Source: Pleionea litopenaei (lineage in GTDB: Bacteria; Pseudomonadota; Gammaproteobacteria; Enterobacterales; Kangiellaceae). From it: a stretch of 64,000 nt of DNA. Numbering within the stretch: position 1 is the first letter of the stretch; the number at the start of each line of letters is the position of its first letter. Positions 1 to 25,641 of the stretch are shown piece after piece. The notes under the pieces are model-generated. The model saw only the letters and a list, made by a program, of their open reading frames with translations, was not told where the DNA came from and searched no databases. The DNA lies in the NCBI RefSeq assembly GCF_031198435.1, contig NZ_CP133548.1, positions 1 through 64,000 on the forward strand, read 5' to 3'. A program made the position numbers and the translations under genes.

Positions 1-3000
1 ATTGACGGCGAATGGCAAGGTGGATAAGGCGGCGTTGCCAGCGGTGGAGGGCGAGCAGGGCGAGAACTACGAAGCTCCGCGCGGAGAATTGGAAGAGCTG
101 CTGGCGAGTTTATGGTCGTCGATGCTGGACATTGACGTCGCGCACATCGGTCGGCAAGCGCACTTTTTTAACCTAGGTGGGCATTCATTATTGTCGATCC
201 GTTTAGTGGCCGAGGTGCGATCACACTGCCAAGTGGCGTTGCCGATAAAGGCCATATTTGATCATCCCCGATTGAGTGAGTTAGCGGCCTATATTGCCGA
301 GCAAGCGCCGAGTGCGGAGCGGTTACCGCCGATCACGGCGGTGAATCGGACCGGAGAGGCATTGCCGTTATCGAGTTCACAATACCGTTTATGGTTGGTG
401 GATCACCTAGGCGGGGGCAGTGCTCAATACAACATATTCTCGGCGTTGCAGTTACGGGGCGAGTTAAATCGCGAAGCCTTACAACACGCGTTGACCGGAT
501 TGTTGAGTCGTCATGAAGTGCTGCGCACGGTGTATGTGGCGCTTGACGGAGAGCAAGTGATGCAGGTGGTGGGCCCGGTGGTTGAGGTGCCTGTGGATGT
601 CGAGTCATTGGCCGATTTACCGGAGCAAGAGCAGGCGGACGCGGTGTTGTTGGCGGGTCAAGAGGAAGCGATCAAGCCGTTTGATTTGAGCCAAGATTTG
701 ATGCTGCGAGTGAAGTTATTGGCATTGGATGCGCAGACGCATGTGGTGTTGTTGACGGTGCACCACATAGCAGCGGACGGTTGGTCGTTAGGGGTGTTGG
801 TGAAAGAGTTTGTGGCGCTGTACGACAGTTACGTGCGCGGCGAGGCGCCGACGTTGCCAGCACTGACCATCCAATACGCGGATTACGCGCACTGGCAGCA
901 AGCGTGGTTGAAGGGGCCGACACGGTCAGCGTTGGAAGCTTATTGGGTGGAGCAGTTGTCGGGGATCCCGCAAGTTCATAGCTTGCCGCTTGAGCAAGGG
1001 CGTCCAGCGCAACAACGGCATCATGGCGCGTCGTACCAGCAGACGTTACCGGCGACGTTGAGTCAAGGGTTGAATGGGTTAGCGCAAGCGTCAGAGGCGA
1101 CGCTGTTTATGGTGATGGAAACGGCGTTTGCGGCGTTGTTGAGTCGACTCAGTGGCGAAGATGACATTGTTGTGGGGACGGCGGTAGCGGGACGAGAGCC
1201 ATTGGAAGTGGCGCCGTTGATCGGTTTCTTTGTGAACAGTGTGGTGCTGCGCAGTGATCTCAGTGGAGCGCCGAGTTTTGACGATTTATTGGCGCGAAAT
1301 AAGTTGATGATCATGGACGCGTATGAGCATCAAGGATTGCCGTTTGAGTTATTGGTAGAGGCGCTGCAGCCGGAGCGAAGTTTGAGTCACGATCCGGTGT
1401 TCCAGATAGTGTTTGGATTAAACAACACCGACAGTCATTCGTTGTCGCTCCCGAATTTAGAGGTGACGACGGTGAATACGCCGCAGCAGACGGCGAAAGT
1501 CGAGCTTGAGTTGAATGTGGTGGAGTTTGCGGGAGAGCTGCACGTTAGCTGGACGTTTAATACGGATTTATTCAGCCGAGAGCAGATAGCGGAGTACGCA
1601 CAAAGCTATGAACGATTATTGAGAGGGATAGTGGCGTCGCCGAGCCGAGCGGTGCATGCGCATCCGTTGCAAACGGAAGAGGAGCGAGTAGCGCAGTGTC
1701 GTGCGTTGTCGGGAGAGCCGTCGGCGGTGTTGTGGCCGACGATGTTGTCGGGCTGGTCAGCGCAAGTGTTGTCACGAGGGACGTCGATGGCAGCGGAGAG
1801 TGGTGAAGCGAGTTTAAGTTATGCGGAGCTGGATGCGCGTTCGAATCAGTTGGCGCATTACCTGTTGGAGATGGGCGTATCGCAAGGCAGCCGAGTGGGG
1901 ATAGCGCTGGGTCGAGGTTTGAGTCAGCTAATCGGTCTGTTGGGTGTGATGAAATCGGGCGCGAGCTATGTGGCGTTGGAGCCGGAGCATCCGCGGGAGC
2001 GTCATGAGTATGTGCTCAAAGATGCGGGCGTTGAGCTGGTGTTGGTGTCGGAGTCGGTATTAGGACGGTTACCCTTGTCGGGTGTGGATGTGTTGTTAAT
2101 GGACGATGCGCTGAGCGACGACTGGTTATCGGATTGGTCACGAACGAGCGTTGATGTGACGGTGAGCGGAGAAGACGAGGCGTATGTGTTGTACACGTCG
2201 GGCTCGACGGGTCGACCGAAAGGGGTGCGCATCAGCCATGGCGGTTTGAGTCATTATTTAAGTCATGCGCAGAGTTACTTGGGTGATTCCATCGAGCGTT
2301 CGGTGGTGAGTTCGCCGCTGTGTTTTGATGCGACGATCACGACGTTGTACGCGCCGTTATTATCGGGCGGAACAGTGGAGTTGTTGCCGGAAGAGGGCGA
2401 TGTGTTGTCGGCGCTAGGAGAGCGTTTGATGGGAGAAGAGGCGTGTTTATTTAAAATCACGCCGGCGCATTTAACGGCGTTGTCGCATGGATTAGATCGA
2501 GAGGCGCGCAGTGATGCGAAGCATTGTGTGGTGGTCGGCGGAGAGCAGTGGCACGTTGGGAGCTTACGGCATTGGAAAGGCGAGCGTTTGGCGCATGCGA
2601 CCTTTGTGAATGAGTACGGACCGACGGAAACGGTGGTGGGTTGCAGTGAATACCGAGTGACGTCGTTGTCGGCGTTGTCGTCGTTGCCGGACAGTGCGGG
2701 CGTGCCGATAGGTCGAGGGATAGCGAATACGCAATTGTACATTCAAGGCGAGGGAGGCGAGAGTCAACCGCCGGGGAGTGTGGGCGAGTTGTGCATAGCG
2801 GGAGCGGGAGTTGGCTTGGGTTATGTGAGCGAGCCGGAGGCGTCGGGATTTGAGGCGCATGGTTATGAGGCGGGAGCGCGTTGGTATCGCAGTGGCGACT
2901 TGGTGCGTTGGAGTGAGACGGGCGGCCTGGTGTATGTGGGTCGACGAGATGAGCAGGTTAAGGTGCGCGGCTTCCGAGTGGAGTTGGGTGAAATTGGCGC

Positions 3001-3396
3001 GGTGCTGGACAGTTGCGAGGGCGTGCAATTGTCGTGTGTGTTGGTGCAGGGAGAGGCGCCGGAGCAGCGGTTAGTGGCGTATGTGGTGCCGGAGTTGATG
3101 CCGGAGGCAGAGGCGGTCCAGAGTGTGTTGGATGAGTATCGAACGCGCTTGAGTGAGCGGTTACCGAGTTACATGGTTCCGCAGCAGTATGTGTTGTTGG
3201 CGGCGATGCCGTTGACGGCGAATGGCAAGGTGGATAAGGCGGCGTTGCCAGCGGTGGATGGTCAAACGACGGGTGTGGAATATGTCGCGCCACGCAATGC
3301 GACCGAAGAGATGTTGTGTGAGATTTGGGGAGAGGTGTTGCGTCGAGAGTCGGTTGGGATCCATGACAATTTCTTTAGCATCGGTGGAGACTCAAT
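1..3396 (+). repeat. 3.4-kb near-identical NRPS repeat, copy 1 (T-C-A-T)
   Basis: Bases 1-3396 match 6681-10076 at a constant offset of 6680 with only scattered substitutions. I count about eleven amino-acid differences over roughly 1130 residues. Similarity stops abruptly just after the codon for the carrier serine (GGDSI). The left limit lies outside the window. Confidence 0.95.
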
Positions 3397-3610
3397 CTTG
3401 TCGATCCGAATTGTTTCAGAGTTAAAGAAATTAGGCTGGTTTTTAGCGGTGCAAGATATTTTTGTGCATCAGACAATTAGTAAGTTGGCTGAAAAAATAA
3501 GCGAACATGGTTCCAATGAAAATGAACAAATAAATACAGAAATTGCTGGAAAAATAATGATGAGCGACAAAGACGAATTAATTAAGGGTGAAGTGGAGAC
3601 TGAAATATGA
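2..3610 (+). CDS. Nonribosomal peptide synthetase, 5'-truncated by the window (…A)-T-C-A-T
   Basis: The reading frame is open at the left edge: the first residues are the A10 motif (TANGKVDKAAL) of an adenylation domain whose body lies outside, so the TTG there is not a start. Visible order by residue of the open frame: carrier domain 25-100 with phosphopantetheine Ser62 in GGHS; condensation domain about 115-550 with HHIAADG at 254-260, LCL-like by its first motif; adenylation domain about 575-1080 with YTSGSTGRPKG, NEYGPTE and YRSGDL; second carrier about 1095-1165 with Ser1131 in GGDSI; then a charged tail of about 35 residues, probably a docking end. By hand alignment to GrsA the A-domain pocket reads D-A-T-A-V-G-E-V-G-K, closest in style to Asn pockets. 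The stop overlaps the next start by four bases (ATGA), so the two are translationally coupled. Nearly the whole visible part is duplicated in the next gene. There is no epimerase and no thioesterase. Confidence 0.95.
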   Translation: MTANGKVDKAALPAVEGEQGENYEAPRGELEELLASLWSSMLDIDVAHIGRQAHFFNLGGHSLLSIRLVAEVRSHCQVALPIKAIFDHPRLSELAAYIAEQAPSAERLPPITAVNRTGEALPLSSSQYRLWLVDHLGGGSAQYNIFSALQLRGELNREALQHALTGLLSRHEVLRTVYVALDGEQVMQVVGPVVEVPVDVESLADLPEQEQADAVLLAGQEEAIKPFDLSQDLMLRVKLLALDAQTHVVLLTVHHIAADGWSLGVLVKEFVALYDSYVRGEAPTLPALTIQYADYAHWQQAWLKGPTRSALEAYWVEQLSGIPQVHSLPLEQGRPAQQRHHGASYQQTLPATLSQGLNGLAQASEATLFMVMETAFAALLSRLSGEDDIVVGTAVAGREPLEVAPLIGFFVNSVVLRSDLSGAPSFDDLLARNKLMIMDAYEHQGLPFELLVEALQPERSLSHDPVFQIVFGLNNTDSHSLSLPNLEVTTVNTPQQTAKVELELNVVEFAGELHVSWTFNTDLFSREQIAEYAQSYERLLRGIVASPSRAVHAHPLQTEEERVAQCRALSGEPSAVLWPTMLSGWSAQVLSRGTSMAAESGEASLSYAELDARSNQLAHYLLEMGVSQGSRVGIALGRGLSQLIGLLGVMKSGASYVALEPEHPRERHEYVLKDAGVELVLVSESVLGRLPLSGVDVLLMDDALSDDWLSDWSRTSVDVTVSGEDEAYVLYTSGSTGRPKGVRISHGGLSHYLSHAQSYLGDSIERSVVSSPLCFDATITTLYAPLLSGGTVELLPEEGDVLSALGERLMGEEACLFKITPAHLTALSHGLDREARSDAKHCVVVGGEQWHVGSLRHWKGERLAHATFVNEYGPTETVVGCSEYRVTSLSALSSLPDSAGVPIGRGIANTQLYIQGEGGESQPPGSVGELCIAGAGVGLGYVSEPEASGFEAHGYEAGARWYRSGDLVRWSETGGLVYVGRRDEQVKVRGFRVELGEIGAVLDSCEGVQLSCVLVQGEAPEQRLVAYVVPELMPEAEAVQSVLDEYRTRLSERLPSYMVPQQYVLLAAMPLTANGKVDKAALPAVDGQTTGVEYVAPRNATEEMLCEIWGEVLRRESVGIHDNFFSIGGDSILSIRIVSELKKLGWFLAVQDIFVHQTISKLAEKISEHGSNENEQINTEIAGKIMMSDKDELIKGEVETEI

Positions 3611-6600
3611 TGGCTATAAATGAGCTGCTTAGATCATTAGAAGAAAAAGGGATACGACTCGGTTTAAATGATAATGGTAATTTAAAAATTCGAGGTGATA
3701 GTGAGAAATTAACCGATGCGCTAATTGCTGAACTTAAAATGCACAAAAGCGACATCATTAGTTTGCTAAAAAAGTCGCAGCCGTTTGGTCAATTAACGGA
3801 TTCAGAACGAGATGAATTGCAATCGACTTTTCCAGAAGAATTAGAAGACGCTTACCCATTATCGGCCTTACAAAGCGGCATGGTTTTTCACACGGAGTTG
3901 GCCGATTTTGATGGGACTTATCACGATTTGAATGCTGAGCATGTGCGTTGTGAATGGCATGAAAATTTCTTCCGCCAAGCGCTTAGCTATTGCGTCACCC
4001 GCCATCCCTTATTGCGCACTGGCTATCGCTTAAAAGGCGAGCGTCCTTTGCAGTTGGTTTATAAAGACGTGCCACTGCCTTTGGTGATTGAGGATATTCG
4101 AGAGCAATCGGATGCTGAACAAGCCGAACATATTGAGCAATGGAAAGCCGCACAAAAGGCGCACCCTTTTAATTGGCTCAGAGGACCGTTGTTTCAAATC
4201 ACTATTTTTCGACGTCAAGACGACAGTTTTGAATACATAGTCAGTTTTCATCACTCGGTATTAGATGGTTGGAGTCGAGTGACATTAACAACCGAATTGT
4301 ACGCATGTTATGAGCGCTTGCTCTCAGGTGAAACGCTCGATGCACCGGTTGTTGATTGGACGTACCGAGATTTTATCGCATTAGAGCAGCAAACGCTTCA
4401 GGATGAGTCGGCGCGAGCGTACTTTAAGCAACAGCTCAAAGAGGTTCCTAGTGTGCAGTTGCCGCGTCTTTATCCGCAGTGGGATGGGCCTGAGCGATTA
4501 AGCTGGCTTCGCATTCGCGAGTTTACTGACTTATCTCAAGATTTGTTGGGGGTTGCACAACAATTAGGTGTCCCTATCCAAGCGTTGTTGATAACGGGCC
4601 ATTTAAAAGTGCTGTCGATGCTCAGTGGTCAATCGAGTGCATTGAGCTGCATTACAGTGAATGGACGGCCCGAACAAGAGCAAGCCGATCAAGGGCTAGG
4701 GTTATTTTTAAATTCTTTGCCTTTATGCGAGACGCTGCCATCAGGAAGTTGGCGCGCGTTGATTGCTCATGTCTCGAATACGTACCGAAAAAACATGGCG
4801 TATCGACGCTATCCGATGTCACAGATCCAACAAGACAGCGGTATCAATTTTTCTGAAGTGTCATTCAATTACACGCATTTTCACGCGTATGAGCAGGCGC
4901 GAGAAATTGTTGAGAAGCGTGATGTCGAAGTGCTCAGTGCGTCGGGCTATGAAGAAACCAATTTTGATTTAGTGGTGGACGTCAGTCGGACGTCTGGAAC
5001 CGATAACTTATTGTTAAGTTTCAGTTATGACAGTCGAGAGTTCAGCGAAGAATTGATGGCGCAGCTGGGCCAATATTATTTGCGCACGTTCCAAGCGTTA
5101 CTGACTGACTTAGACGGTGCTCATGAGCAAACTGAGTGGCAAACGGAAGAGGAGCGAGTGGCGCAGTGTCGTGCGTTGTCGGGAGAGCCGTCGGCGGTGT
5201 TGTGGCCGACGATGTTGTCGGGCTGGTCAGCGCAAGTGTTGTCACGAGGGACGTCGATGGCGGCGGAGAGTGGTGAAGCGAGTTTAAGTTATGCAGAGCT
5301 GGATGCGCGTTCGAATCAGTTAGCGCATTACCTGTTGGAGATGGGCGTATCGCAAGGCAGCCGAGTGGGGATAGCGCTGGGTCGAGGTTTGAGTCAGCTA
5401 ATCGGTCTGTTGGGTGTGATGAAGTCGGGTGCGAGCTATGTGGCGTTGGAGCCGGAGCATCCGCGGGAGCGTCATGAGTATGTGCTCAAAGATGCGGGCG
5501 TTGAGCTGGTGTTGGTGTCGGAGTCGGTATTAGGACGGTTGCCCTTGTCGGGTGTGGATGTGTTGTTAATGGACGATGCGCTGAGCGACGACTGGTTATC
5601 GGATTGGTCACGAACGAGCGTTGATGTGACGGTGAGCGGAGAAGACGAGGCGTATGTGTTGTACACGTCGGGCTCGACGGGTCGACCGAAAGGGGTGCGC
5701 ATCAGCCATGGAGGTTTGAGTCATTATTTAAGTCATGCGCAGAGTTACTTGGGTGATTCCATCGAGCGTTCGGTGGTGAGTTCGCCGCTGTGTTTTGATG
5801 CGACGATCACGACGTTGTACGCGCCGTTATTATCGGGCGGAACAGTGGAGTTGTTGCCGGAAGAGGGCGATGTGTTGTCGGCGCTAGGAGAGCGTTTGAT
5901 GGGAGAAGAGGCGTGTTTATTTAAAATCACGCCGGCGCATTTAACGGCGTTGTCGCATGGTTTAGATCGAGAGGCGCACAGTGATGCGAAGCATTGTGTG
6001 GTGGTCGGCGGAGAGCAGTGGCACGTTGGGAGCTTACGGCATTGGAAAGGCGAGCGTTTGGCGCATGCGACCTTTGTGAATGAGTACGGACCGACGGAAA
6101 CGGTGGTGGGTTGCAGTGAATACCGAGTGACGTCGTTGTCGGCGTTGTCGTCGTTGCCGGACAGTGCGGGTGTGCCGATAGGTCGAGGGATAGCGAATAC
6201 GCAATTGTACATTCAAGGCGAGGGAGGCGAGAGTCAACCGCCGGGGAGTGTGGGCGAGTTGTGCATAGCGGGAGCGGGAGTTGGCTTGGGTTATGTGAGC
6301 GAGCCGGAGGCGTCGGGATTTGAGGCGCATGGTTATGAGGCGGGAGCACGTTGGTATCGCAGTGGCGACTTGGTGCGTTGGAGTGAGACGGGCGGTTTGG
6401 TGTATGTGGGCCGACGAGATGAGCAGGTTAAGGTGCGCGGCTTCCGAGTGGAGTTGGGTGAAATTGGTGCGGTGCTGGACAGTTGCGAGGGCGTGCAATC
6501 GTCGTGTGTGTTGGTGCAGGGAGAGGCGCCGGAGCAGCGGTTAGTGGCGTATGTGGTGCCGGAGTTGATGCCGGAGGCAGAGGCGGTCCAGAGTGTGTTG

Positions 6601-9600
6601 GATGAGTATCGAACGCGCTTGAGTGAGCGGTTACCGAGTTACATGGTCCCGCAGCAGTATGTGTTGTTGGCGGCGATGCCGTTGACGGCGAATGGCAAGG
6701 TGGATAAGGCGGCGTTGCCAGCGGCGGAGGGCGAGCAGGGCGAGAACTACGAAGCTCCGCGCGGAGAATTGGAAGAGCTGCTGGCGAGTTTATGGTCGTC
6801 GATGCTGGACATTGACGTCGCGCACATCGGTCGGCAAGCGCACTTTTTTAACCTAGGTGGGCATTCATTATTGTCGATCCGTTTAGTGGCCGAGGTGCGA
6901 TCACACTGCCAAGTGGCGTTGCCGATAAAGGCCATATTTGATCATCCCCGATTGAGTGAGTTAGCGGCCTATATTGCCGAGCAAGCGCCGAGTGCGGAGC
7001 GGTTACCGCCGATCACGGCGGTGAGTCGGACCGGAGAGGCATTGCCGTTATCGAGTTCGCAATACCGCTTATGGTTGGTGGATCACCTAGGCGGGGGCAG
7101 TGCTCAGTACAACATATTCTCGGCGTTGCAGTTACGGGGCGAGTTAAATCACGAAGCCTTACAGCAAGCGTTGACCGGATTGTTGAGTCGTCATGAAGTG
7201 CTGCGCACGGTGTATGTGGCGCTCGACGGAGAGCAAGTGATGCAGGTGGTGGGCCCGGTGGTTGAGGTGCCTGTGGACGTCGAGTCATTGGCCGATTTAC
7301 CGGAGCAAGAGCAGGCAGACGCGGTGTTGTTGGCGGGTCAAGAGGAAGCGATCAAGCCGTTTGATTTGAGCCAAGATTTGATGCTGCGGGTGAAGTTATT
7401 GGCACTGGATGCGCAGACGCATGTGGTGTTGTTGACGGTGCACCACATAGCGGCGGACGGTTGGTCGTTAGGGGTGTTGGTGAAAGAGTTTGTGGCGCTG
7501 TACGACAGTTACGTGCGCGGCGAGGCGCCGACGTTGCCAGCACTGACGATCCAATACGCGGATTACGCGCACTGGCAGCAAGCGTGGTTGAAGGGGCCGA
7601 CACGGTCAGCGTTGGAAGCTTACTGGGTGGAGCAGTTGTCGGGGATCCCGCAAGTTCATAGCTTGCCGCTTGAGCAAGGGCGTCCGGCACAACAACGGCA
7701 TCATGGCGCGTCGTACCAGCAGACGTTACCGGCGACGTTGAGTCAAGGGTTGAATGAGTTAGCGCAAGCGTCAGAGGCGACGCTGTTTATGGTGATGGAA
7801 ACGGCGTTTGCGGCGTTGTTGAGTCGGCTCAGTGGCGAAGATGACATTGTTGTGGGGACAGCGGTAGCGGGACGAGAGCCATTGGAAGTGGCGCCGTTGA
7901 TCGGTTTCTTTGTGAACAGTGTGGTGCTGCGCAGTGATCTCAGTGGAGCGCCGAGTTTTGACGATTTATTGGCGCGAAATAAGTTGATGATCATGGACGC
8001 GTATGAGCATCAAGGATTGCCGTTTGAGTTATTGGTAGAGGCGCTGCAGCCGGAGCGAAGTTTGAGTCACGATCCGGTGTTCCAGATAGTGTTTGGATTA
8101 AACAACACCGACAGTCATTCGTTGTCGCTCCCGAATTTAGAGGTGACGACGGTGAATACGCCGCAGCAGACGGCGAAAGTCGAGCTTGAGTTGAATGTGG
8201 TGGAGTTTGCGGGAGAGCTGCACGTTAGCTGGACGTTTAATACGGATTTATTCAGCCGAGAGCAGATAGCGGAGTACGCACAAAGCTATGAACGATTATT
8301 GAGAGGGATAGTGGCGTCGCCGAGCCGAGCGGTGCATGCGCATCCGTTGCAAACGGAAGAGGAGCGAGTGGCGCAGTGTCATGCGTTGTCGGGAGAGCCG
8401 TCGGCGGTGTTGTGGCCGACGATGTTGTCGGGCTGGTCAGCGCAAGTGTTGTCACGAGGGGCGTCGATGGCGGCGGAGAGTGGTGAAGCGAGTTTAAGTT
8501 ATGCGGAGCTGGATGCGCGTTCGAATCAGTTGGCGCATTACCTGTTGGAGATGGGCGTATCGCAAGGCAGCCGAGTGGGGATAGCGCTGGGTCGAGGTTT
8601 GAGTCAGCTAATCGGTCTGTTGGGTGTGATGAAGTCGGGGGCGAGCTATGTGGCGTTGGAGCCGGAGCATCCGCGGGAGCGTCATGAGTATGTGCTCAAA
8701 GATGCGGGCGTTGAGCTGGTGTTGGTGTCGGAGTCGGTATTAGGACGGTTGCCCTTGTCGGGTGTGGATGTGTGGTTAATGGACGATGCGCTGAGCGACG
8801 ACTGGTTATCAGATTGGTCACGAACGAGCGTTGATGTGACGGTGAGCGGAGAAGACGAGGCGTATGTGTTGTACACGTCGGGCTCGACGGGTCGACCGAA
8901 AGGGGTGCGCATCAGCCATGGAGGTTTGAGTCATTATTTAAGTCATGCGCAGAGTTACTTGGGTGATTCCATCGAGCGTTCAGTGGTGAGTTCGCCGCTG
9001 TGTTTTGATGCGACGATCACGACGTTGTACGCGCCGTTATTATCGGGCGGAACAGTGGAGTTGTTGCCAGAAGAGGGCGATGTGTTGTCGGCGCTAGGAG
9101 AGCGTTTGATGGGAGACGAGGCGTGTTTATTTAAAATCACGCCGGCGCATTTAACGGCGTTGTCGCATGGATTAGATCGAGAGGCGCGCAGTGATGCGAA
9201 GCATTGTGTGGTGGTCGGCGGAGAGCAGTGGCACGTTGGGAGCTTACGGCATTGGAAAGGCGAGCGTTTGGCGCATGCGACCTTTGTGAATGAGTACGGA
9301 CCGACGGAAACGGTGGTGGGTTGCAGTGAATACCGAGTGACGTCGTTGTCGGCGTTGTCGTCGTTGCCGGACAGTGCGGGTGTGCCGATAGGTCGAGGGA
9401 TAGCGAATACGCAATTGTACATTCAAGGCGAAGGAGGCGAGAGTCAACCGCCGGGGAGTGTGGGCGAGTTGTGCATAGCGGGAGCGGGAGTTGGCTTGGG
9501 TTATGTGAGCGAGCCGGAGGCGTCGGGATTTGAGGCGCATGGTTATGAGGCGGGAGCGCGTTGGTATCGCAGTGGCGACTTGATGCGTTGGAGTGAGACG

Positions 9601-10263
9601 GGCGGCCTGGTGTATGTGGGTCGACGAGATGAGCAGGTTAAGGTGCGCGGCTTCCGAGTGGAGTTGGGTGAAATTGGCGCGGTGCTGGACAGTTGCGAGG
9701 GCGTGCAATCGTCGTGTGTGTTGGTGCAGGGAGAGGCGCCGGAGCAGCGGTTAGTGGCGTATGTGGTGCCGGAGTTGATGCCGGAGGCAGAGGCGGTCCA
9801 GAGTGTGTTGGATGAGTATCGAACGCGCTTGAGTGAGCGGTTACCGAGTTACATGGTCCCGCAGCAGTATGTGTTGTTGGCGGCGATGCCGTTGACGGCG
9901 AATGGCAAGGTGGATAAGGCGGCGTTGCCAGCGGTGGATGGTCAAACGACGGGTGTGGAATATGTCGCGCCACGCAATGCGACCGAAGAGATGTTGTGTG
10001 AGATTTGGGGTGAGGTGTTGCGTCGAGAGTCGGTTGGGATCCATGACAATTTCTTTAGTATCGGTGGAGACTCAATTTCTTCAATTCGAATAGTAACTTT
10101 ATTAAGGTTACGAGGAGCAAACTTAGATATTACTAACTTGTTCCTAAACCCAACCATTGCTGCAGTCGCCAATTATATTTCTTTTGACTCTGTTGAAGAA
10201 CTTGAGCATCAAAAAGAAACAATGATTCAACAAGGTAAAAAAATTGAAGAAGGCGAACTTTAG
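3607..10263 (+). CDS. Nonribosomal peptide synthetase, dock-C-A-T-C-A-T (two modules)
   Basis: This 2218-residue cytosolic megasynthase adds two residues. Residues 1-55 look like a TubC-type N-terminal docking domain. The first condensation domain (about 75-490) has HHSVLDG at 215-221 and a YPLSALQSGMVFH-type first motif, seen in DCL or dual-type domains. The first adenylation domain is about 512-1030 and its carrier has Ser1087 (GGHS). The second condensation domain has HHIAADG starting at 1279 and is LCL-like. The second adenylation domain is about 1583-2095 and its carrier has Ser2156 (GGDSI). Both adenylation pockets equal that of the upstream gene, so I infer the same amino acid is used at each. 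From the first A10 motif to the last carrier Ser the DNA is a near copy of the upstream gene. The final 60 residues are unrelated and AT-rich. The order of action with neighbours should follow the docking domains. Confidence 0.96.
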   Translation: MMAINELLRSLEEKGIRLGLNDNGNLKIRGDSEKLTDALIAELKMHKSDIISLLKKSQPFGQLTDSERDELQSTFPEELEDAYPLSALQSGMVFHTELADFDGTYHDLNAEHVRCEWHENFFRQALSYCVTRHPLLRTGYRLKGERPLQLVYKDVPLPLVIEDIREQSDAEQAEHIEQWKAAQKAHPFNWLRGPLFQITIFRRQDDSFEYIVSFHHSVLDGWSRVTLTTELYACYERLLSGETLDAPVVDWTYRDFIALEQQTLQDESARAYFKQQLKEVPSVQLPRLYPQWDGPERLSWLRIREFTDLSQDLLGVAQQLGVPIQALLITGHLKVLSMLSGQSSALSCITVNGRPEQEQADQGLGLFLNSLPLCETLPSGSWRALIAHVSNTYRKNMAYRRYPMSQIQQDSGINFSEVSFNYTHFHAYEQAREIVEKRDVEVLSASGYEETNFDLVVDVSRTSGTDNLLLSFSYDSREFSEELMAQLGQYYLRTFQALLTDLDGAHEQTEWQTEEERVAQCRALSGEPSAVLWPTMLSGWSAQVLSRGTSMAAESGEASLSYAELDARSNQLAHYLLEMGVSQGSRVGIALGRGLSQLIGLLGVMKSGASYVALEPEHPRERHEYVLKDAGVELVLVSESVLGRLPLSGVDVLLMDDALSDDWLSDWSRTSVDVTVSGEDEAYVLYTSGSTGRPKGVRISHGGLSHYLSHAQSYLGDSIERSVVSSPLCFDATITTLYAPLLSGGTVELLPEEGDVLSALGERLMGEEACLFKITPAHLTALSHGLDREAHSDAKHCVVVGGEQWHVGSLRHWKGERLAHATFVNEYGPTETVVGCSEYRVTSLSALSSLPDSAGVPIGRGIANTQLYIQGEGGESQPPGSVGELCIAGAGVGLGYVSEPEASGFEAHGYEAGARWYRSGDLVRWSETGGLVYVGRRDEQVKVRGFRVELGEIGAVLDSCEGVQSSCVLVQGEAPEQRLVAYVVPELMPEAEAVQSVLDEYRTRLSERLPSYMVPQQYVLLAAMPLTANGKVDKAALPAAEGEQGENYEAPRGELEELLASLWSSMLDIDVAHIGRQAHFFNLGGHSLLSIRLVAEVRSHCQVALPIKAIFDHPRLSELAAYIAEQAPSAERLPPITAVSRTGEALPLSSSQYRLWLVDHLGGGSAQYNIFSALQLRGELNHEALQQALTGLLSRHEVLRTVYVALDGEQVMQVVGPVVEVPVDVESLADLPEQEQADAVLLAGQEEAIKPFDLSQDLMLRVKLLALDAQTHVVLLTVHHIAADGWSLGVLVKEFVALYDSYVRGEAPTLPALTIQYADYAHWQQAWLKGPTRSALEAYWVEQLSGIPQVHSLPLEQGRPAQQRHHGASYQQTLPATLSQGLNELAQASEATLFMVMETAFAALLSRLSGEDDIVVGTAVAGREPLEVAPLIGFFVNSVVLRSDLSGAPSFDDLLARNKLMIMDAYEHQGLPFELLVEALQPERSLSHDPVFQIVFGLNNTDSHSLSLPNLEVTTVNTPQQTAKVELELNVVEFAGELHVSWTFNTDLFSREQIAEYAQSYERLLRGIVASPSRAVHAHPLQTEEERVAQCHALSGEPSAVLWPTMLSGWSAQVLSRGASMAAESGEASLSYAELDARSNQLAHYLLEMGVSQGSRVGIALGRGLSQLIGLLGVMKSGASYVALEPEHPRERHEYVLKDAGVELVLVSESVLGRLPLSGVDVWLMDDALSDDWLSDWSRTSVDVTVSGEDEAYVLYTSGSTGRPKGVRISHGGLSHYLSHAQSYLGDSIERSVVSSPLCFDATITTLYAPLLSGGTVELLPEEGDVLSALGERLMGDEACLFKITPAHLTALSHGLDREARSDAKHCVVVGGEQWHVGSLRHWKGERLAHATFVNEYGPTETVVGCSEYRVTSLSALSSLPDSAGVPIGRGIANTQLYIQGEGGESQPPGSVGELCIAGAGVGLGYVSEPEASGFEAHGYEAGARWYRSGDLMRWSETGGLVYVGRRDEQVKVRGFRVELGEIGAVLDSCEGVQSSCVLVQGEAPEQRLVAYVVPELMPEAEAVQSVLDEYRTRLSERLPSYMVPQQYVLLAAMPLTANGKVDKAALPAVDGQTTGVEYVAPRNATEEMLCEIWGEVLRRESVGIHDNFFSIGGDSISSIRIVTLLRLRGANLDITNLFLNPTIAAVANYISFDSVEELEHQKETMIQQGKKIEEGEL
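5141..6728 (+). repeat. Third copy of the 1.6-kb adenylation-domain repeat
   Basis: Bases 5141-6728 match 1671-3258 (offset 3470) and 8351-9938. Similarity begins abruptly at aaacggaaga in the C-A linker and ends in the A-T linker. Upstream of 5141 the condensation domain is unrelated to the other two. The adenylation domain was therefore copied as a unit between different condensation domains. Confidence 0.93.
6681..10076 (+). repeat. 3.4-kb near-identical NRPS repeat, copy 2 (T-C-A-T)
   Basis: This is the partner of bases 1-3396 at offset 6680. The last common bases are at 10071-10076. After that the two genes encode unrelated carrier C-terminal halves (ILSIRIVSELKK against SSIRIVTLLRLR). 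Confidence 0.95.
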
Positions 10264-10334: not shown

Positions 10335-11651
10335 ATGAAAAAAGAAAATATAGAACTTTCAAACTATCATGAATTTAATTTACATTCGGCCCATTCGCAG
10401 GATGCTGTCGATAAAATTAATAAATCGTTTTATGGTCGATTTAACTTTCCATGGTATCCCTCAATTGCAGAAAAGTTTAATGATCAGTCGTTTTCGATCA
10501 ATATGCTTAACCAAGATATCGGGTCATGGGATCATTCTCGAATTCAAAAGAGCGCTAAAATATGGGTGGCTGGTTGTGGTACCAATCAAGCTGTATTAAC
10601 CGCATTGAAATACCCTGAGTCGGAGATCACTGGGACGGATATTTCAGTTGAATCACTTGCCGCCGCTCGAGCCCTGGCTGAAAAACTAAATGTAACGAAT
10701 TTGAAATTAGAAGAAAAAAGCATTAATGACGTCACTTACAAAGATGAGTTTGACTACATAATTTGTACTGGCGTAATACATCATAATGCCAATCCTCAAA
10801 TTCCCTTAGAAAAACTAAGCAATGCATTAAAGAAAAATGGAATAATGGAGTTGTTTGTATACAATTACTATCGAAGAATTTTGAATACAGCATTTCAAAA
10901 AGCGATAAGATTGATTTGTACGGATGACGGTACCCCCAATATTGACTTAGAATTGCCGTTAACCAATTTGATGATCAATAATTCTGCGCACAGCTGCAGT
11001 GGATTGATGCAATCACAGCTATTTCATTTGAAAGGCGCGCATGAATGTGATATCGCCGACAAGTTATTGCAGCCTGTCGAGCATAGTTATACTGTCGAAA
11101 CATTTGATCGCTTGGTTCAAGAGTGTCAATTGCAAATTGTGAGTAATTGCATTTGCTCATGGGATAAGGTCGAAGATGCTCTTTCATTTGAAATGAAATT
11201 TCATGACAAAGAACTAGCTGAGAAATATGAGTCACTTCCAGATATTACTCGATGGAAAATAGGGAACTTATTATTATTAGAGGAATCGCCTAACACATGG
11301 TTTTATTTACAGAAGAAAGAGTCTGACTTTGCTGTTAAAGACACTCATCAAATAAATGCTGAATTTCTCGATACTGTGTTTGAAAAAACAAAGGCAAAGA
11401 CGGATCTCTTTGTTCGCAATCACGATGATTCATATTTACTTGCGACAAAAGGTAAGTCCTATCCGCAGCCGGAAATTCCTACTAATAATATTGCGTCCCT
11501 AGTCTTCAATAGGGTTGATGGTAAGAAAACTGTAAGAGAAATATTATCAAGCTTAGGGACGAATTTAGGTTTTTATGAATTAAATGATTTGCGCATGCGT
11601 TTAACAACGACCGCCTTCCCATATTTAGTATCAATAAAAAATAAAATATAA
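10335..11651 (+). CDS. SAM-dependent methyltransferase with PqqD-like C-terminal domain
   Basis: This 438-residue class I methyltransferase has motif I VAGCGT at 78-83, the acidic ribose-binding Asp in TGTD (99-102) and ICTGVIHH at 143-150. It probably methylates the peptide or a precursor. Residues about 375-438 (SLVFNRVDGKKTVREI and following) look like the PqqD/winged-helix fold that binds peptides in RiPP and some NRPS pathways. That part is by pattern only. The AAGGA Shine-Dalgarno at 10323 and ATG at 10335 are well spaced. The gene sits between two NRPS genes in the same direction and is clearly AT-richer than the NRPS repeats. The methyl acceptor (O, N or C) cannot be told from the sequence. 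Confidence 0.85.
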   Translation: MKKENIELSNYHEFNLHSAHSQDAVDKINKSFYGRFNFPWYPSIAEKFNDQSFSINMLNQDIGSWDHSRIQKSAKIWVAGCGTNQAVLTALKYPESEITGTDISVESLAAARALAEKLNVTNLKLEEKSINDVTYKDEFDYIICTGVIHHNANPQIPLEKLSNALKKNGIMELFVYNYYRRILNTAFQKAIRLICTDDGTPNIDLELPLTNLMINNSAHSCSGLMQSQLFHLKGAHECDIADKLLQPVEHSYTVETFDRLVQECQLQIVSNCICSWDKVEDALSFEMKFHDKELAEKYESLPDITRWKIGNLLLLEESPNTWFYLQKKESDFAVKDTHQINAEFLDTVFEKTKAKTDLFVRNHDDSYLLATKGKSYPQPEIPTNNIASLVFNRVDGKKTVREILSSLGTNLGFYELNDLRMRLTTTAFPYLVSIKNKI

Positions 11652-11669: not shown

Positions 11670-14600
11670 ATGACAATTGCAGCGCGATTGATTGCGGAAG
11701 CAAAAGCTCAAGGTGTTACTTTATATATTAAAGGTGACAAATTAGCCTACTTGGCCGAAGAGGGTGGTTTTTCTAACGAACTGAAATCTAGAGTAGTAGA
11801 GAATAAAGAGTTGATCAGGCAGTTTTTTCTTGATGAGAAAAACTCAACACATTTAAATGCTCCTTTCAGCCAGTTGACAGCGCTTGAGCGAGAATCGCTC
11901 GAGAATAATGAACAGTACGAAGATATCTATCCTCTCGCTGCTTTGCAGGCAGGCATGGTATTTCACACCGAGCTAGAAGGTTTTAGTGGTATATATCATG
12001 ATATTGCGGTACAGCACATTCGTTGTGAATGGAACGAAGGGTTATTTCGAGAAGCGTTGGACTATTGCATCGCGCGCCATCCTATTTTAAGAACGCATTA
12101 TTATTTAAAAGGTGAGCGTCCTCTACAACTGGTGTTGCGTCATGGGCCCTTGCCATTGGAAGTCGAAGACATTCGTTTACTCGATCGTGAAGAACAAGCG
12201 CAACAATTAAAACATTGGGTAGAGCAAAGAAAAACGCATGTTTTTGATTGGCAATCAGGACCGCTGTACCAAATCAATATTTTCTTACGCAGTGAAGAAA
12301 GTTTTCAGTTCATCATCAGTTTTCATCATTCGGTGTTAGATGGTTGGAGCCGCGCGTCATTTAGCACTGAGTTGTACAATTGTTATGAGCGATTACTGGC
12401 GGGAGCGACCTTACCTGCGGTATCAACTGACTGGACCTATCGTGATTTTATTGCGTCTGAGCAAAAGGCCATTGCACAAGTCGAGTCGATAGAACACTTT
12501 AGAAATATGTTACACGATGCACCTGTCTATCAGTTGCCTCGTTTACCTGACGATACCTCGAGCACGTCCGGACACCGCTCGATGGGATTACCAAAATTCC
12601 GACAGCACTCAGAGCAACTGTTAGCACTGTCGAAAAGCATGGGCGTGCCCATTCAATCGATATTGTTAGCGGCTCATCTTAAAGTACTGTCGACGGTGAG
12701 TGGTCATCGTAAAGCGATGACGTGCATGTTAGGTAATGGTCGACCAGAGCGAGAAGGTGCAGAGCAAGGGTTAGGATTATTTTTTAACTCTCTGCCATTA
12801 GCGCTTGAGCTGGATGATTGTACTTGGCGTCAACTTATTGAGCGAGTGTCGAGTGCTAACGCACAAAACCTATCGCATCGTTTGTATCCTCTTTCTGAAG
12901 TTCAAAAACATCTTGGGCGAGATTTTTCTGAGGTGATGTTCTACTTCACCCACTTCCATGTTTTCGAACAAATGAATACGCCGAAAAAATCATCGGCAAG
13001 TGAGGCCGCGAATGAGACGGGCCGTTCAACGTTTGAAGTCTTGAATGCATTTTCTTATGAACAGACTAATTTCGATTTATTGGTCAGTGTGGCGCAAAGT
13101 TTAGGCGTCGATGAAATGGATTTGAACTTTGTCTACAACACGCAAGTTTACAGTGAGCAACAAATTAAACAGCTGAGTCATTATTATCTGATGGCTTTTG
13201 ATTTGATGCTAATGCAGTTAGACACGTCTCACCAGGCGACGTCTTTATTATCCGCTAGCGAGCAGCGAGAGTTATTAGCGCCGGTAACCCCTTCGTCATC
13301 AACGTTCTCGCCTCCGGCAACGTTTTTACAATCTTGGTCAGAGCAAGTCAATGCCCGCAATACGCAGGTAGCGGTTCGCAGTGGTGATGAGTCTTGGTGT
13401 TACGGTGAGCTAGAAGAGCAAGCGAATCGAGTGGCGAACTGGCTCAGTGCACAGGGTGTGCAAAAAGGCGATGTGATAGGGGTGTGTTTGGAGCGCAGCT
13501 TACCTTTAATGAGCCATTTGTTGGGTTGCCTAAAAGTAGGTGCGGCGTATTTGCCGCTGGATCCCAGTTACCCCGAACAACGCTTGCAGTACATGTTAAG
13601 CGATAGCCAAGCGCAATGGGTGTTGGTTGATGTCGAGCATCCGGCATTTAAGCGTGAGGGCGTCAAGGTGTTCAATATTGCGTCGACGGATTATCAAGCG
13701 GCGTTATTTGCAAGTGCATCTGAGTATCGTTCCGAGGTAAGGGCAGGCGATTTGGCTTACCTGATTTACACATCCGGCTCAACGGGCCAGCCGAAAGGTG
13801 TGATGGTGAGTCATGGCAACGTAGCGAACTTTTTAATGAGCATGCAAGAGCAGCCCGGTTGCCAAGTCGGAGATCGTTTATTGGCGGTGACACCGATCAG
13901 CTTCGACATTCATGTATTGGAATTATTTTTACCGTTGATAAGTGGTGCGGAAGTGGTGCTGTGTCGTCGAGAAGACAGTGTCGATGGAGCGCGTTTGTCG
14001 GCACAGTTAGCGGAGCATGAAATCACGATGATGCAAGCGACCCCGATGACTTGGCGGTTGTTGCTCGACAGCGGAGAGTGGCCCTCAGGGGTTATTTTGA
14101 AGGCGCTGTGTGGTGGAGAACGTTTAGCGGAGGATTTAGCGAGTCGTTTGTTAGAGCGAGTGGATTCGCTATGGAATATGTACGGACCGACGGAAACGAC
14201 GGTGTGGTCGACCTGCGCGCGGCTGACGAATGAAGGTGTGAGCATCGGTTATCCGATAGCGAATACGCAATGTTATGTGTTGAGTGAGTCGAGAGAGCTG
14301 TTACCGCGAGGCGTCAGTGGAGAGTTGTATATAGGCGGAGCGGGTGTAACGCAGGGATATTGGCAGCGAGAAGCGTTAACGGCGGAGCGTTATTGTGACA
14401 ATCCGTTTGTAGAAGGTGGACAAGAACGGATGTATCGAACGGGCGATCGAGTGCGATATTTGGCGGATGGACGTTTGCACTATGAAGGTCGAGTGGATGA
14501 GCAGGTCAAGCTGCGAGGGCAGCGAATAGAGCCTGGAGAAATAGAAAGCGTTTTAGTCGAGCATGAAGGACTACGGTCAGCGGTGGTAACGATTCAATCG

Positions 14601-15143
14601 GGAGCGGGAGAGGATGATGGTCGCTTGGTGGCTTATGTGGTCTTGGCTGACAAAGAGGGATTGTTAGACGAGGGAGAGTTAGCGGAGCGATTGCGTGACT
14701 ATTTAGAGCCCCGTTTACCACTGCATCTGATCCCGAGTGCTTATGCGGTCTTAGAGGCTTTGCCCTTAACGCCGAATGGCAAGGTAGATAAACGAGCGTT
14801 GCCGGCCATCACAAATGAACAAGGCACTCGTCCATTTACTGAGCCAAGTAATGAAACAGAACAAACCTTGGTCACCCTGCTGGCAAAAATCCTGGCACGA
14901 CCCGACCATGACATCAGTACCAGCGCGAGCTTTTTTGAGTTGGGCGGACACTCTTTAATGGCAATGCGTTTTGCGAATGAAATTAGCCAAAACTTTAATA
15001 TTCATTTTCAATTAACCACTATTTTTCATTATCCGACAATAAAACAGATGGCTTTGGAGATTAATAACCTGAGCAACAGCAATAGTTTGATATTTAAAAC
15101 TGAATCAGAATTGTCAAGCGATGAAATGGAGATATCGATATGA
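11670..15143 (+). CDS. Nonribosomal peptide synthetase, dock-C-A-T (one module)
   Basis: Residues 1-58 look like a TubC-type docking domain. The condensation domain (about 75-510) has HHSVLDG at 219-225 and a YPLAALQAGMVFH first motif, so it is a sister of the first condensation domain of the two-module gene. The adenylation domain (about 545-1045) has YTSGSTGQPKG, NMYGPTETTVW and YRTGD. By hand alignment its pocket reads D-I-L-M-L-G-M-V-W-K, nearest to known glycine pockets such as DILQLGLIWK; this is tentative. The carrier has Ser1095 in GGHS. The stop overlaps the next gene's start by four bases. The A domain is unrelated at DNA level to the three repeated A domains. A C-terminal tail of about 35 residues may be the partner dock. 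Confidence 0.95.
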   Translation: MTIAARLIAEAKAQGVTLYIKGDKLAYLAEEGGFSNELKSRVVENKELIRQFFLDEKNSTHLNAPFSQLTALERESLENNEQYEDIYPLAALQAGMVFHTELEGFSGIYHDIAVQHIRCEWNEGLFREALDYCIARHPILRTHYYLKGERPLQLVLRHGPLPLEVEDIRLLDREEQAQQLKHWVEQRKTHVFDWQSGPLYQINIFLRSEESFQFIISFHHSVLDGWSRASFSTELYNCYERLLAGATLPAVSTDWTYRDFIASEQKAIAQVESIEHFRNMLHDAPVYQLPRLPDDTSSTSGHRSMGLPKFRQHSEQLLALSKSMGVPIQSILLAAHLKVLSTVSGHRKAMTCMLGNGRPEREGAEQGLGLFFNSLPLALELDDCTWRQLIERVSSANAQNLSHRLYPLSEVQKHLGRDFSEVMFYFTHFHVFEQMNTPKKSSASEAANETGRSTFEVLNAFSYEQTNFDLLVSVAQSLGVDEMDLNFVYNTQVYSEQQIKQLSHYYLMAFDLMLMQLDTSHQATSLLSASEQRELLAPVTPSSSTFSPPATFLQSWSEQVNARNTQVAVRSGDESWCYGELEEQANRVANWLSAQGVQKGDVIGVCLERSLPLMSHLLGCLKVGAAYLPLDPSYPEQRLQYMLSDSQAQWVLVDVEHPAFKREGVKVFNIASTDYQAALFASASEYRSEVRAGDLAYLIYTSGSTGQPKGVMVSHGNVANFLMSMQEQPGCQVGDRLLAVTPISFDIHVLELFLPLISGAEVVLCRREDSVDGARLSAQLAEHEITMMQATPMTWRLLLDSGEWPSGVILKALCGGERLAEDLASRLLERVDSLWNMYGPTETTVWSTCARLTNEGVSIGYPIANTQCYVLSESRELLPRGVSGELYIGGAGVTQGYWQREALTAERYCDNPFVEGGQERMYRTGDRVRYLADGRLHYEGRVDEQVKLRGQRIEPGEIESVLVEHEGLRSAVVTIQSGAGEDDGRLVAYVVLADKEGLLDEGELAERLRDYLEPRLPLHLIPSAYAVLEALPLTPNGKVDKRALPAITNEQGTRPFTEPSNETEQTLVTLLAKILARPDHDISTSASFFELGGHSLMAMRFANEISQNFNIHFQLTTIFHYPTIKQMALEINNLSNSNSLIFKTESELSSDEMEISI

Positions 15144-19409: not shown

Positions 19410-20363
19410 TTGTTTACTATTTCATTAGAAGAAATTCCAGGATTACCGGTAGTAAAGCCTGGGGAAAAATATGAGGGAATTGACCACTCGAGTTTCTACC
19501 GCTCTATCGCTAGTGAAATCTCACCGATCATTGAACAATACGGCGGCGTTTTAATGCGAGGGTTTAAGATAGACTCAGAAGCTGCGTTTCAAGACTTTAT
19601 GAGTGCAATTCCAGAGCAGCAATTGGATTATATCGATGGTAATTCTCCACGAACGAAATTAATTGGAAAAGTGTATACCTCAACTGAATATCCAAAAGAA
19701 TATGAGCTTTCAATGCATAACGAGTTATCTTACTCGAACAATTGGCCAAAAATGTTGTATTTTTGTTGCGTTACCGAGCCTCTTGAAGGTGGCCATACGT
19801 TGATTGCAGATTGCAGAAAAGTATTAAAAGAACTAGATCCTGATTTGGTTGATAAGTTCGCTAAGAATAAAGTTAAGTATACTCGGTATCTGCATGGTGG
19901 ATTCGGCTTGGGATCTTCATGGCAAAAAACGTTTGAAGTATCATCAAAAGATGAAGCAGAGCAATGCTGTAAGGATCTAGATATCGATTTTGAATGGGAC
20001 GACGATGATGGTCTAATGATATCGCAAATCGGGCCGGGAGTAGCAAGGCATAGAACCACGAATGAGTTAGTCTGGTTTAATCAAGCGGATCAATTTCATT
20101 TATATAATCTTCCTGATGAGATACAAGAAGGCATCTTAGCTCTTACTGAAGGTGACAAGCGAAAGTATCCTACTTACGCATATTTTGGTAATGGGGAAGA
20201 AATAGACACTCGCTTGTTAAAGGAGGTTCGTTCGGTTTTTAAAAAGAACACAATAGTATTTCCATGGAAAAAAGGCGACTTGATGATCATCGATAATCAG
20301 CTTATGGCGCATGGAAGGTCTCCCTTTAATTGTGAGCGAAAGATTTTAGTAAGCATGACATAA
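19410..20363 (+). CDS. SyrP/AsnO-like Fe(II)/2-oxoglutarate-dependent oxygenase (TauD superfamily)
   Basis: The 317-residue protein has the iron-binding His103-x-Glu105 (MHNELSY), followed by the GGHT segment typical of TauD-like enzymes, and the distal His301 in MAHGR. Such stand-alone enzymes in NRPS clusters beta-hydroxylate Asp on a carrier (SyrP) or free Asn (AsnO). Here either Asn/Asp or another tethered residue is possible. The start is TTG at 19410, backed by AAAGGAG 6-8 bases upstream; no in-frame ATG lies near. It follows the terminal NRPS by 16 bases, so it belongs to that operon. A paralogue follows 28 bases downstream. Confidence 0.88.
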   Translation: MFTISLEEIPGLPVVKPGEKYEGIDHSSFYRSIASEISPIIEQYGGVLMRGFKIDSEAAFQDFMSAIPEQQLDYIDGNSPRTKLIGKVYTSTEYPKEYELSMHNELSYSNNWPKMLYFCCVTEPLEGGHTLIADCRKVLKELDPDLVDKFAKNKVKYTRYLHGGFGLGSSWQKTFEVSSKDEAEQCCKDLDIDFEWDDDDGLMISQIGPGVARHRTTNELVWFNQADQFHLYNLPDEIQEGILALTEGDKRKYPTYAYFGNGEEIDTRLLKEVRSVFKKNTIVFPWKKGDLMIIDNQLMAHGRSPFNCERKILVSMT

Positions 20364-20391
20364 AAATTTAAGAGAATATTAGAGGATTGAA

Positions 20392-24160: not shown

Positions 24161-24202
24161 ATCAATATTTATCGCAATAATAAATATTTAATAATTTTGT
24201 TA

Positions 24203-24218
24203 TGTCCATTTTTGGACA
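24203..24218. promoter_or_regulatory. Palindromic candidate enhancer site for the NtrC-type regulator
   Basis: TGTCCA-TTTT-TGGACA is a perfect inverted repeat about 100 bases upstream of the sigma-54 promoter, at a usual distance for enhancer-bound activators. A looser half-site (CGGACA, 24236-24241) follows. The assignment to this regulator is inference from position. Confidence 0.6.
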
Positions 24219-24301
24219 GCATACTATTACAAAACCGGACACTTTCCAATACGTATCTATGTTTACTCGCCGCTAACGTAGATTTAATACTGCCTTCGAA
24301 G

Positions 24302-24318
24302 TTGGCATCTAACTTGCT
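24302..24318 (+). promoter_or_regulatory. Sigma-54 (RpoN) promoter of the exporter operon
   Basis: TTGGCATCTAACTTGCT matches the consensus YTGGCACRNNNNTTGCW with GG at 24304-24305 and GC at 24316-24317 in exact spacing. Transcription should begin near 24329, about 20-40 bases before the adaptor gene. Confidence 0.85.
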
Positions 24319-24367
24319 GTAGCTCGTTAACTATTCTAGAACGATCAAAATGCGGCAAGGAGTAACT

Positions 24368-25627: not shown

Positions 25628-25641
25628 ATAGGGATGAAATC

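What the first reader, a model, noticed from the sequence alone, without database searches (positions are those of the whole stretch)
1..10076. Almost identical 3.4-kb NRPS segments in adjacent genes, with breakpoints at domain landmarks
Bases 1-3396 recur at 6681-10076, and the A-domain part recurs a third time at 5141-6728. The right break falls directly after the carrier serine codon. The A-domain copy begins and ends in inter-domain linkers. About eleven residues differ over 1130. This implies very recent duplication or ongoing gene conversion, and shows where recombination swaps units in this cluster: the A domain alone, and T-C-A-T as a block.
Basis: seen in the sequence. Interest (0 to 1): 0.75.

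Follow-up and report, generated by a model that had tools for sequence, protein, structure and literature searches.

The report
Repeated G-rich peptide-synthetase module segments
A bacterium's very large peptide-making enzyme cluster carries many almost identical copies of the same building blocks, cut at the same functional landmarks, and the more copies a block has the more its silent DNA positions have shifted to the letter G, which suggests that the copies keep rewriting each other rather than being merely fresh duplicates.

Summary
Window 2-3396 matches 6682-10076 at 98.8% without gaps (11 residue changes, dS 0.038, omega 0.11), and the A block recurs at 5139-6728, with sharp edges. It is one edge of a larger thing: window plus the far end of the same contig form one NRPS region with 25 A domains and one TE, holding an alpha (Asn-like code) A domain 8 times plus a chimera, beta (Gly-like) 3 times, gamma (Ala-like) 3 times. 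Three module families end at the carrier motif GGxS; others break at A10, A3 or the C/A linker. New here: silent sites grow G-rich with copy number (fourfold G 0.14-0.17 single copy, 0.29-0.35 two, 0.42-0.50 three, 0.57-0.69 four to nine) while C does not rise. That resembles GRINS of polyketide synthases but mostly lacks their TA skew; it is not plain GC-biased conversion. In 18 other repeat-bearing NRPS sets GC3 rises with copies in 16, but the G-versus-C direction varies. 'Very recent duplication' is only partly right; concerted evolution with recoding fits best; import of G-rich modules is not excluded.

The parts
1..3607 (+). 3' end of NRPS gene G7 (T-C-A-T); its 5' part lies at C1:4368211-4380405; joined over the contig ends it reads 5,267 aa with no stop
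   Evidence: the join is inferred, no reads
2..3396 (+). copy 1 of the 3.4-kb repeat: A10 motif (LTANGKVD) - T - C - alpha A - first part of T up to the codon after GGDS
1669..3258 (+). alpha A block (code DATKVGEVGK, Asn-like by recall), from the end of C to the A/T linker
3607..10260 (+). NRPS gene G8: TubC_N dock - C - A - T - C - A - T
3769..5138 (+). C domain present in two copies (other at C1:4358470-4359839); fourfold G 0.34
5139..6728 (+). second alpha A block in the window, flanked on the left by a different C domain
6682..10076 (+). copy 2 of the 3.4-kb repeat; ends in the codon after GGDS of the last T of G8
8349..9938 (+). third alpha A block in the window
10335..11648 (+). stand-alone methyltransferase gene G9, single copy, absent from the parallel block at C1:4364.6-4368.2 kb
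11670..15140 (+). NRPS gene G10: TubC_N dock - C - A - T
11949..13316 (+). two-copy C domain (other in G6); fourfold G 0.35; left break near the start of C (YPL[AS]ALQ)
13317..14810 (+). beta A domain, three copies (G1, G6, G10), code DILQLGMVWK (Gly-like by recall); fourfold G 0.42
14955..14957 (+). right break of the G6/G10 repeat: last shared codon, the one after GGHS of the carrier domain
15140..19390 (+). NRPS gene G11: dock - C - A - T - thioesterase; single copy, fourfold G 0.16; the only TE found among the NRPS genes scanned
   Evidence: the dock scores just under Pfam's cut-off (24.5 vs 26)
19410..21354 (+). two TauD-family dioxygenases, possible tailoring (hydroxylation) enzymes of the cluster
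   Evidence: role inferred

Best explanation
The window holds one end of a very long NRPS line in which whole modules, A domains alone and C-A-T blocks exist in 2 to 9 near-identical copies. Copies arise and are spread by homologous exchange between modules, with junctions on conserved core motifs (A3, A10, the carrier GGxS, the start of C) and in the C/A linker (junctions shown; process inferred). The copies then evolve in concert, so they stay about 96-100% alike although they are not young (inferred). While a segment is multi-copy, its silent positions drift to G on the coding strand, more so with more copies (the graded composition is shown; the drift is inferred). The likely cause is a strand-biased outcome of exchange or repair between paralogous modules, of the GRINS kind (inferred). 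The presumed product is a long, Asn-, Gly- and Ala-rich peptide (codes computed, meanings recalled).
For: Sharp edges and motif junctions in several module families. Differences between copies mostly synonymous, omega 0.11, so they look real and constrained. Nine repeat stretches: copies vs fourfold G rho 0.91; with six single-copy stretches rho 0.95; C: rho -0.12 over all 15 and -0.61 (p 0.08) within the nine. The four alpha stretches are not independent; counting alpha once leaves six families, still in order. Composition switches inside one gene at each change of copy number, e.g. G7 94155-94832 (numbered from C1:4280001) single copy GC4 0.34 between stretches of 0.46 (2 copies) and 0.76 (9 copies). 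Two-copy segments are already shifted in three separate cases. Incompatible site pairs among copies. A GC3 rise with copy number elsewhere: 16 of 18 repeat-bearing sets positive, Wilcoxon p 0.0045; 8 of 18 individually below p 0.05, two of the 16 nearly zero.
Against: No direct conversion tracts: incompatibilities do not cluster (alpha A p 0.95, alpha C p 0.10), so recurrent mutation or polishing noise could make them. No orthologous cluster was found, so 'paralogs closer than orthologs' could not be tested. Edge taper of GC3 is only mild (0.48-0.49 in the first 150 bases, 0.52-0.55 deeper). In other genomes the shift is to G in some and to C in others (12 of 18 toward G; 6 of 18 shifts with p below 0.05, three each way), so G-recoding is not general. 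Two of 18 sets fall in GC3 with copies (Caballeronia, Streptomyces). Copy number is counted today and need not reflect the past.
Confidence: 0.55

Rival explanations
1. Imported and amplified: G-rich modules came by horizontal transfer from other organisms and were then duplicated recently; copy number and composition are linked only because the imported pieces were the ones amplified.
For: Sharp composition steps at the edges; AT-rich host cluster; frequent module exchange between clusters in print (PMC8097286, abstract, section 6 and section 7 part 1 of 3 read). Repeats elsewhere can be as skewed as alpha (fourfold GC skew 0.65 in G272, 0.58 in Eleftheria), so a skewed donor is conceivable.
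Against: It needs about six separate imports whose G content happens to rank by copy number. C is not raised, unlike an ordinary GC-rich donor; in the 18 other sets the single-copy codons (low-copy in three) reach a fourfold GC skew of at most 0.33, against 0.69 here. Best reported relative of the alpha module in 394 genomes of the order is 46% identical (limit E 1e-200, two candidates scored per genome); best listed in the plasmid collection 40.6%.
Confidence: 0.3
2. Ordinary recent duplication without conversion: modules were copied a short time ago and have only begun to diverge.
For: High identity, few amino-acid changes; no clustered conversion tracts.
Against: Composition graded by copy number; many four-gamete conflicts between copies; pair divergence inside one family ranges widely (alpha C 0.4 to 4.1%).
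Confidence: 0.1
3. Assembly artefact: the repeats are wholly or partly a product of long-read assembly or of polishing.
For: The contig starts at the repeat edge; C2 is an indel-rich duplicate; ORFs are split by frame changes at the A/T border of G4 and G5.
Against: Copies sit between different neighbours, differ mainly at third codon positions, and keep frame over thousands of codons in the window. C2 repeats the window's first alpha block with 0 substitutions. The composition pattern is hard to explain by assembly.
Confidence: 0.05
4. Canonical GC-biased gene conversion, raising G and C alike in recombining copies.
For: GC3 and GC4 rise with copy number here and GC3 in 16 of 18 other sets; G/C is the majority allele at 89 versus 44 G/C-versus-A/T sites, ties left out; GC-biased conversion is proposed for bacteria (PMC4450053, abstract and passages).
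Against: In this cluster only G rises, C does not; in other sets often only one of the two rises. Symmetric conversion cannot give that by itself.
Confidence: 0.1

Closest known systems
[quoted passage not shown] 2021; that paper is not held; known here from PMC10394414 section 10 and passages of PMC9899208)
   Same: Repeats of over 90% identity within one assembly line, strong G-over-C skew on the coding strand, linked to gene conversion.
   Different: NRPS and not PKS; TA skew below the limits in all but one segment; aligned repeat blocks of about 1.1 to 6.5 kb; AT-rich host cluster of an unnamed organism; graded by copy number.
Concerted evolution of NRPS/PKS domains (PMC4256081, passages)
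   Same: Sequence-homogenised domains inside one cluster; syringopeptin and mycolactone synthases named there as extreme examples.
   Different: The term 'GC content' does not occur in that text; here composition follows copy number.
XUT and linker+A exchange sites (PMC12668312 and PMC7486941, passages)
   Same: Natural junctions at FFxxGGxS, at the A/T border and at the very end of the C domain are sites used in engineering.
   Different: Here they are natural and recur within one cluster.
Acore subdomain swaps (PMC8097286, abstract, section 6, section 7 part 1 of 3)
   Same: G7.A2 is a chimera with its junction at motif A3.
   Different: That survey found C-A linker, Asub and Asub-T interface mostly kept; here several junctions lie in or next to them.

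Membership tests
Modular NRPS assembly line | C, A, T domains and TE in order | tested here: met
GRINS | identity over 80-90% to another region of the same synthase, at least 500 bp | tested here: met
   (the alpha T+linker stretch taken alone is 320 bp)
GRINS | GC skew above 0.15 (PMC9899208) or 0.25 (PMC10394414) | tested here: met
   met for alpha A 0.40-0.41, beta 0.31, alpha C 0.29; gamma 0.22, alpha T 0.16 and one two-copy family 0.16 pass only the lower limit; the other two-copy families 0.11-0.12 fail; four single-copy stretches 0.13-0.14
GRINS | TA skew above the same limits | tested here: not met
   0.06-0.12 in eight of nine repeat stretches; the 521-base N-part of alpha A has 0.16 and so passes the lower limit only; hence called GRINS-like
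Concerted evolution | copies in one genome closer to each other than to orthologs | tested here: inconclusive
   no ortholog found
Concerted evolution | mosaic conversion tracts among copies | tested here: inconclusive
   incompatible pairs 93 of 276 and 128 of 300, no clustering
GC-biased gene conversion | G and C rise alike at silent sites | tested here: not met
Natural XUT-type junction | breakpoint at FFxxGGxS of the T domain | tested here: met
   three module families end one to three codons after the serine (GGDS, GGHS, GGHSLLA)

The most novel reading that the evidence does not exclude
Being multi-copy itself drives strand-specific recoding: exchange between paralogous modules writes G into silent positions of the coding strand at a rate that grows with the number of partners. 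This cluster, with 1-, 2-, 3-, 4-, 6- and 9-copy segments side by side in an AT-rich background, is a natural dose series that exposes how GRINS-like elements arise.
Probability: 0.3. Interest if true: 0.85.

Novelty: new variant of a known kind. Interest (0 to 1): 0.6.

Why it matters
How assembly lines gain, swap and homogenise modules decides what molecules they make, and engineers use such junctions. This locus shows several junction types at once in nature. Whether gene conversion is biased in bacteria is disputed in print (PMC4450053 abstract for; PMC8153448 abstract says not observed; a passage of PMC8223754 cites both views). A dose series inside one cluster makes the link between copy number, exchange and base composition testable.

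Tried and rejected
Tried and rejected or inconclusive: (1) C2 as an extra real copy: rejected, 0 substitutions to the window in the first alpha block, differing there by indels; in its second alpha block it has 12 mismatches and further indels. (2) Naming the organism: the one genome-contig scan gave only a distant 26% hit in a spirochaete MAG, and it may leave out near records; the 16S search of the own genome found none; 17.5 kb of the plasmid contig shares only stretches of about 100 bases or fewer with seven plasmids of Alteromonas, Salinimonas, Shewanella, Vibrio and Marinobacter; left open. (3) Orthologous cluster: by the methyltransferase, 26 of 61 genomes (own included) matched at E 0.001, but outside the own genome only weakly, best 29% over 103 residues; by G8, all 5 genus genomes (own included) have matches, best outside the own genome 30%; by the alpha module 11 of 394 genomes of the order at E 1e-200 (own included), best 46%. 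None looks like an ortholog. (4) Canonical GC-biased conversion was my leading idea until base composition was split by strand. (5) Chi-like motifs: GCTGGTGG absent from the repeat and from single-copy G2-G3; GGTGG on the coding strand 13 in 3.3 kb against 22 in 22.7 kb, as G-richness alone may give. (6) Near-neighbour incompatibility test not significant. (7) Tandem-repeat finder on L132: no rows, period limit 500. (8) Plasmid half of the survey on its own: 5 of 8 positive, Wilcoxon p 0.23.

Survey bookkeeping: NRPS stretches of 42 genomes were fetched, picked by me from those listed. The first eight were picked for many NRPS hits and partly with GC in view, as the GC of some loci had been seen; a crude look at them (repeats of at least 90%) gave repeats richer in GC in 8 of 8 regions with repeats, one by 0.001. 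The other 34 were picked after that for long ORFs and mostly few contigs, without knowing their repeats or GC. 10 of 42 had at least 80 codons in repeats of at least 95% over 300 bases; the other 32 were dropped from the tests. 15 plasmids of 238 matching records were fetched by my choice, three of them Mycetohabitans; I passed over several records of human pathogens and a Planktothrix record; 8 of 15 had repeats. For three plasmid sets that are nearly all repeat I contrasted low with high copy number, with slightly different cuts. Four rhizobial plasmids probably share related clusters, so the 18 sets are not fully independent.

Full report
1. Window 2-3396 and 6682-10076 align over 3,395 bases with 41 mismatches and no gap. 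30 codons differ silently and 11 change the residue; changes by codon position are 3/7/31. dS is 0.038, dN 0.0043, ratio 0.11. Identity collapses at 3396/10076 and at 3258/6728. The A block starts at 1669/5139, or 1666/5136 by another aligner setting.

2. Surroundings. The window is the first 64 kb of contig C1 (4,380,405 bases) of a 4.42-Mb, three-contig assembly. More copies lie at the other end of C1. Taking C1:4280001-4380405 and joining it to the window gives one NRPS region: G1 (4 A domains), G2 (4), G3 (3), G4 (3), G5 (2), G6 (1), G7 (4, two modules with an epimerisation-like domain, inferred from weak C-type hits), G8 (2), a methyltransferase, G10 (1) and G11 (1 with TE), 25 A domains in all, plus an upstream stand-alone A-T protein. 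The join falls inside the A10 motif of G7.A3 and reads 5,267 codons without a stop; it is inferred and not backed by reads. C2 (6,568 bases) duplicates window 3-6561 with indels and is not a further copy. C3 looks like a 17.6-kb plasmid assembled twice over, since its ORFs recur at that spacing.

3. Repeat families. A-domain identities give three groups: alpha, 8 full copies at 99-100% plus G7.A2, which is alpha from motif A3 onward only; beta, 3 copies at 98-99%; gamma, 3 copies at about 100%, as a tandem with period 3,150. The groups are 36-39% alike. Codes are DATKVGEVGK, DILQLGMVWK and DLFNNALTYK; reading them as Asn, Gly and Ala is from memory. A larger block, window 3769-10076 plus 11949-14957, matches 78470-84778 plus 85011-88019 (numbered from C1:4280001) at 99.4% and 98.6%; the methyltransferase gene lies in the window copy only.

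4. Junctions. Right ends at the carrier domain, one to three codons past the serine: alpha at GGDS, the G6/G10 block at GGHS, gamma at GGHSLLA. A/T border: alpha ends at GKVDKAALPA, beta at GKVDKRALPA. Starts: A10 (LTANGKVD) for the 3.4-kb block, just before A10 for gamma; the end of C for the alpha A block; the C/A linker for beta; A3 (YTSGSTG) for the G7 cassette; the start of C for the G6/G10 block. Because these motifs are conserved among unrelated modules, a junction is known only to within its motif. The engineering sites XUT III/IV lie in FFxxGGxS (PMC12668312, passages); [quoted passage not shown] A survey of natural swaps found the C-A linker, Asub and Asub-T interface mostly kept (PMC8097286, section 6); this cluster departs from that trend.

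5. Composition. Single-copy modules have GC3 near 0.32, the most repeated near 0.66. GC at fourfold sites by copies: 1: 0.305, 2: 0.491, 3: 0.644, 4: 0.673, 5: 0.757 (107 sites), 6: 0.765, 8: 0.707, 9: 0.762. Split by base, fourfold G is 0.14-0.17 in six single-copy stretches; 0.29, 0.34 and 0.35 in three two-copy families; 0.42 and 0.50 in the three-copy families; 0.57 (4), 0.69 (6), 0.64 (8) and 0.61 (9) in the parts of alpha. C stays between 0.07 and 0.21. Spearman of copies with G is 0.95 over all 15 stretches and 0.91 over the nine repeat stretches; with C it is -0.12 and -0.61 (p 0.08). The parts of alpha share a history and are not independent. One duplicated block of G7 holds both a 9-copy part (GC4 0.76-0.78) and a 2-copy part (0.46), so composition follows copy number and not the block.

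6. Reading it. If recoding happened in place, about half of the fourfold sites of alpha changed while copies stayed within a few percent of each other; that means long concerted evolution, not a fresh duplication. If modules arrived G-rich, about six imports must rank by copy number by chance. I prefer the first (0.55 against 0.3). Direct tracts were not shown, and the edge test gives only a mild taper.

7. Elsewhere. Of 42 genomes whose NRPS stretches I fetched, 10 had repeats of at least 95%; in all 10 the repeats had GC3 at or above that of domain-matched single-copy codons, two of them by 0.001 or less, and 5 of 10 were individually below p 0.05 in a shift test (Wilcoxon p 0.001). Of 15 plasmids, 8 had repeats and 5 of 8 were higher; Caballeronia, Ensifer and Streptomyces were lower. 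As a trend with copy number, 16 of 18 are positive, Caballeronia and Streptomyces negative; 8 of 18 are individually below p 0.05. The strongest is G155: GC3 0.59, 0.79, 0.81, 0.84 for 1 to 4 copies. But which base rises varies: 12 of 18 shift toward G, 6 toward C, and 6 of 18 shifts have p below 0.05, three each way (composition). So the wider statement is altered, often strand-skewed composition in repeats; the G-only, copy-graded form is shown for this cluster alone.

8. Known kinds. GRINS are defined by repeats with both GC and TA skew, are linked to gene conversion, and are called rare in proteobacterial PKSs (PMC10394414 section 10). Here GC skew is met by alpha A, alpha C and beta, and TA skew is not met except in one 521-base stretch at the lower of two published limits, so I call it GRINS-like, not GRINS. 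Concerted evolution of NRPS and PKS domains is established (PMC4256081, passages). I found no paper that links NRPS repeat copy number to base composition; the searches were made, seen mostly as listings, in an open-access library that lacks the original GRINS paper.

9. Assembly caution. ORFs G4 and G5 end with a frame change at the A/T border, and a C domain upstream of G1 is split over two frames. Such breaks may be sequencing errors. They do not touch the window copies, which are open throughout.

Noticed in passing
G000:C2:1-6568 versus window 3-6561: A small contig repeats the start of the window with indels and frame breaks: a leftover of assembly at a repeat edge, not another gene copy.
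   Followed up: yes
G000:C3:1-35039 (L016, L017): The 35-kb contig looks like two head-to-tail copies of a 17.6-kb plasmid, as the same ORF set recurs at that spacing.
   Followed up: partly
C1 near 4,357.9-4,358.0 kb and 4,364.6-4,364.7 kb; also 4,311.9-4,312.9 kb: Frame breaks at the A/T border of G4 and G5 and inside a C domain before G1; sequencing error or real lesions, left as they are.
   Followed up: partly
C1:4374400-4375872 (in L026), A domain G7.A2: A chimeric A domain: unrelated N-terminal part up to motif A3, then the alpha sequence with its Asn-like pocket.
   Followed up: partly
G3.A1, G3.A3 and G11.A1 (window 15140-19390 for the last): Pocket code IRWVFSLSDK lacks the usual Asp at position 235, so the substrate may not be an ordinary alpha-amino acid.
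   Followed up: no
window 19410-21354: Two TauD-family dioxygenases next to the NRPS, possibly side-chain hydroxylases of the peptide.
   Followed up: no
window 21447-28750: Histidine kinase, sigma-54 response regulator and a MacAB-like exporter (HlyD, ABC ATPase, FtsX) directly after the cluster: likely regulation and export.
   Followed up: no
L132 (G155:C2:4515001-4535000): A second strong case: repeated NRPS parts at GC 0.64-0.66 among single-copy parts mostly at 0.51-0.62, with C and not G raised on the coding strand.
   Followed up: partly
C1:4307641-4311836 (L019): A penicillin-amidase-type acylase and an ABC transporter just upstream of the NRPS genes, suggesting an acyl group may be cut from the product on export.
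   Followed up: no
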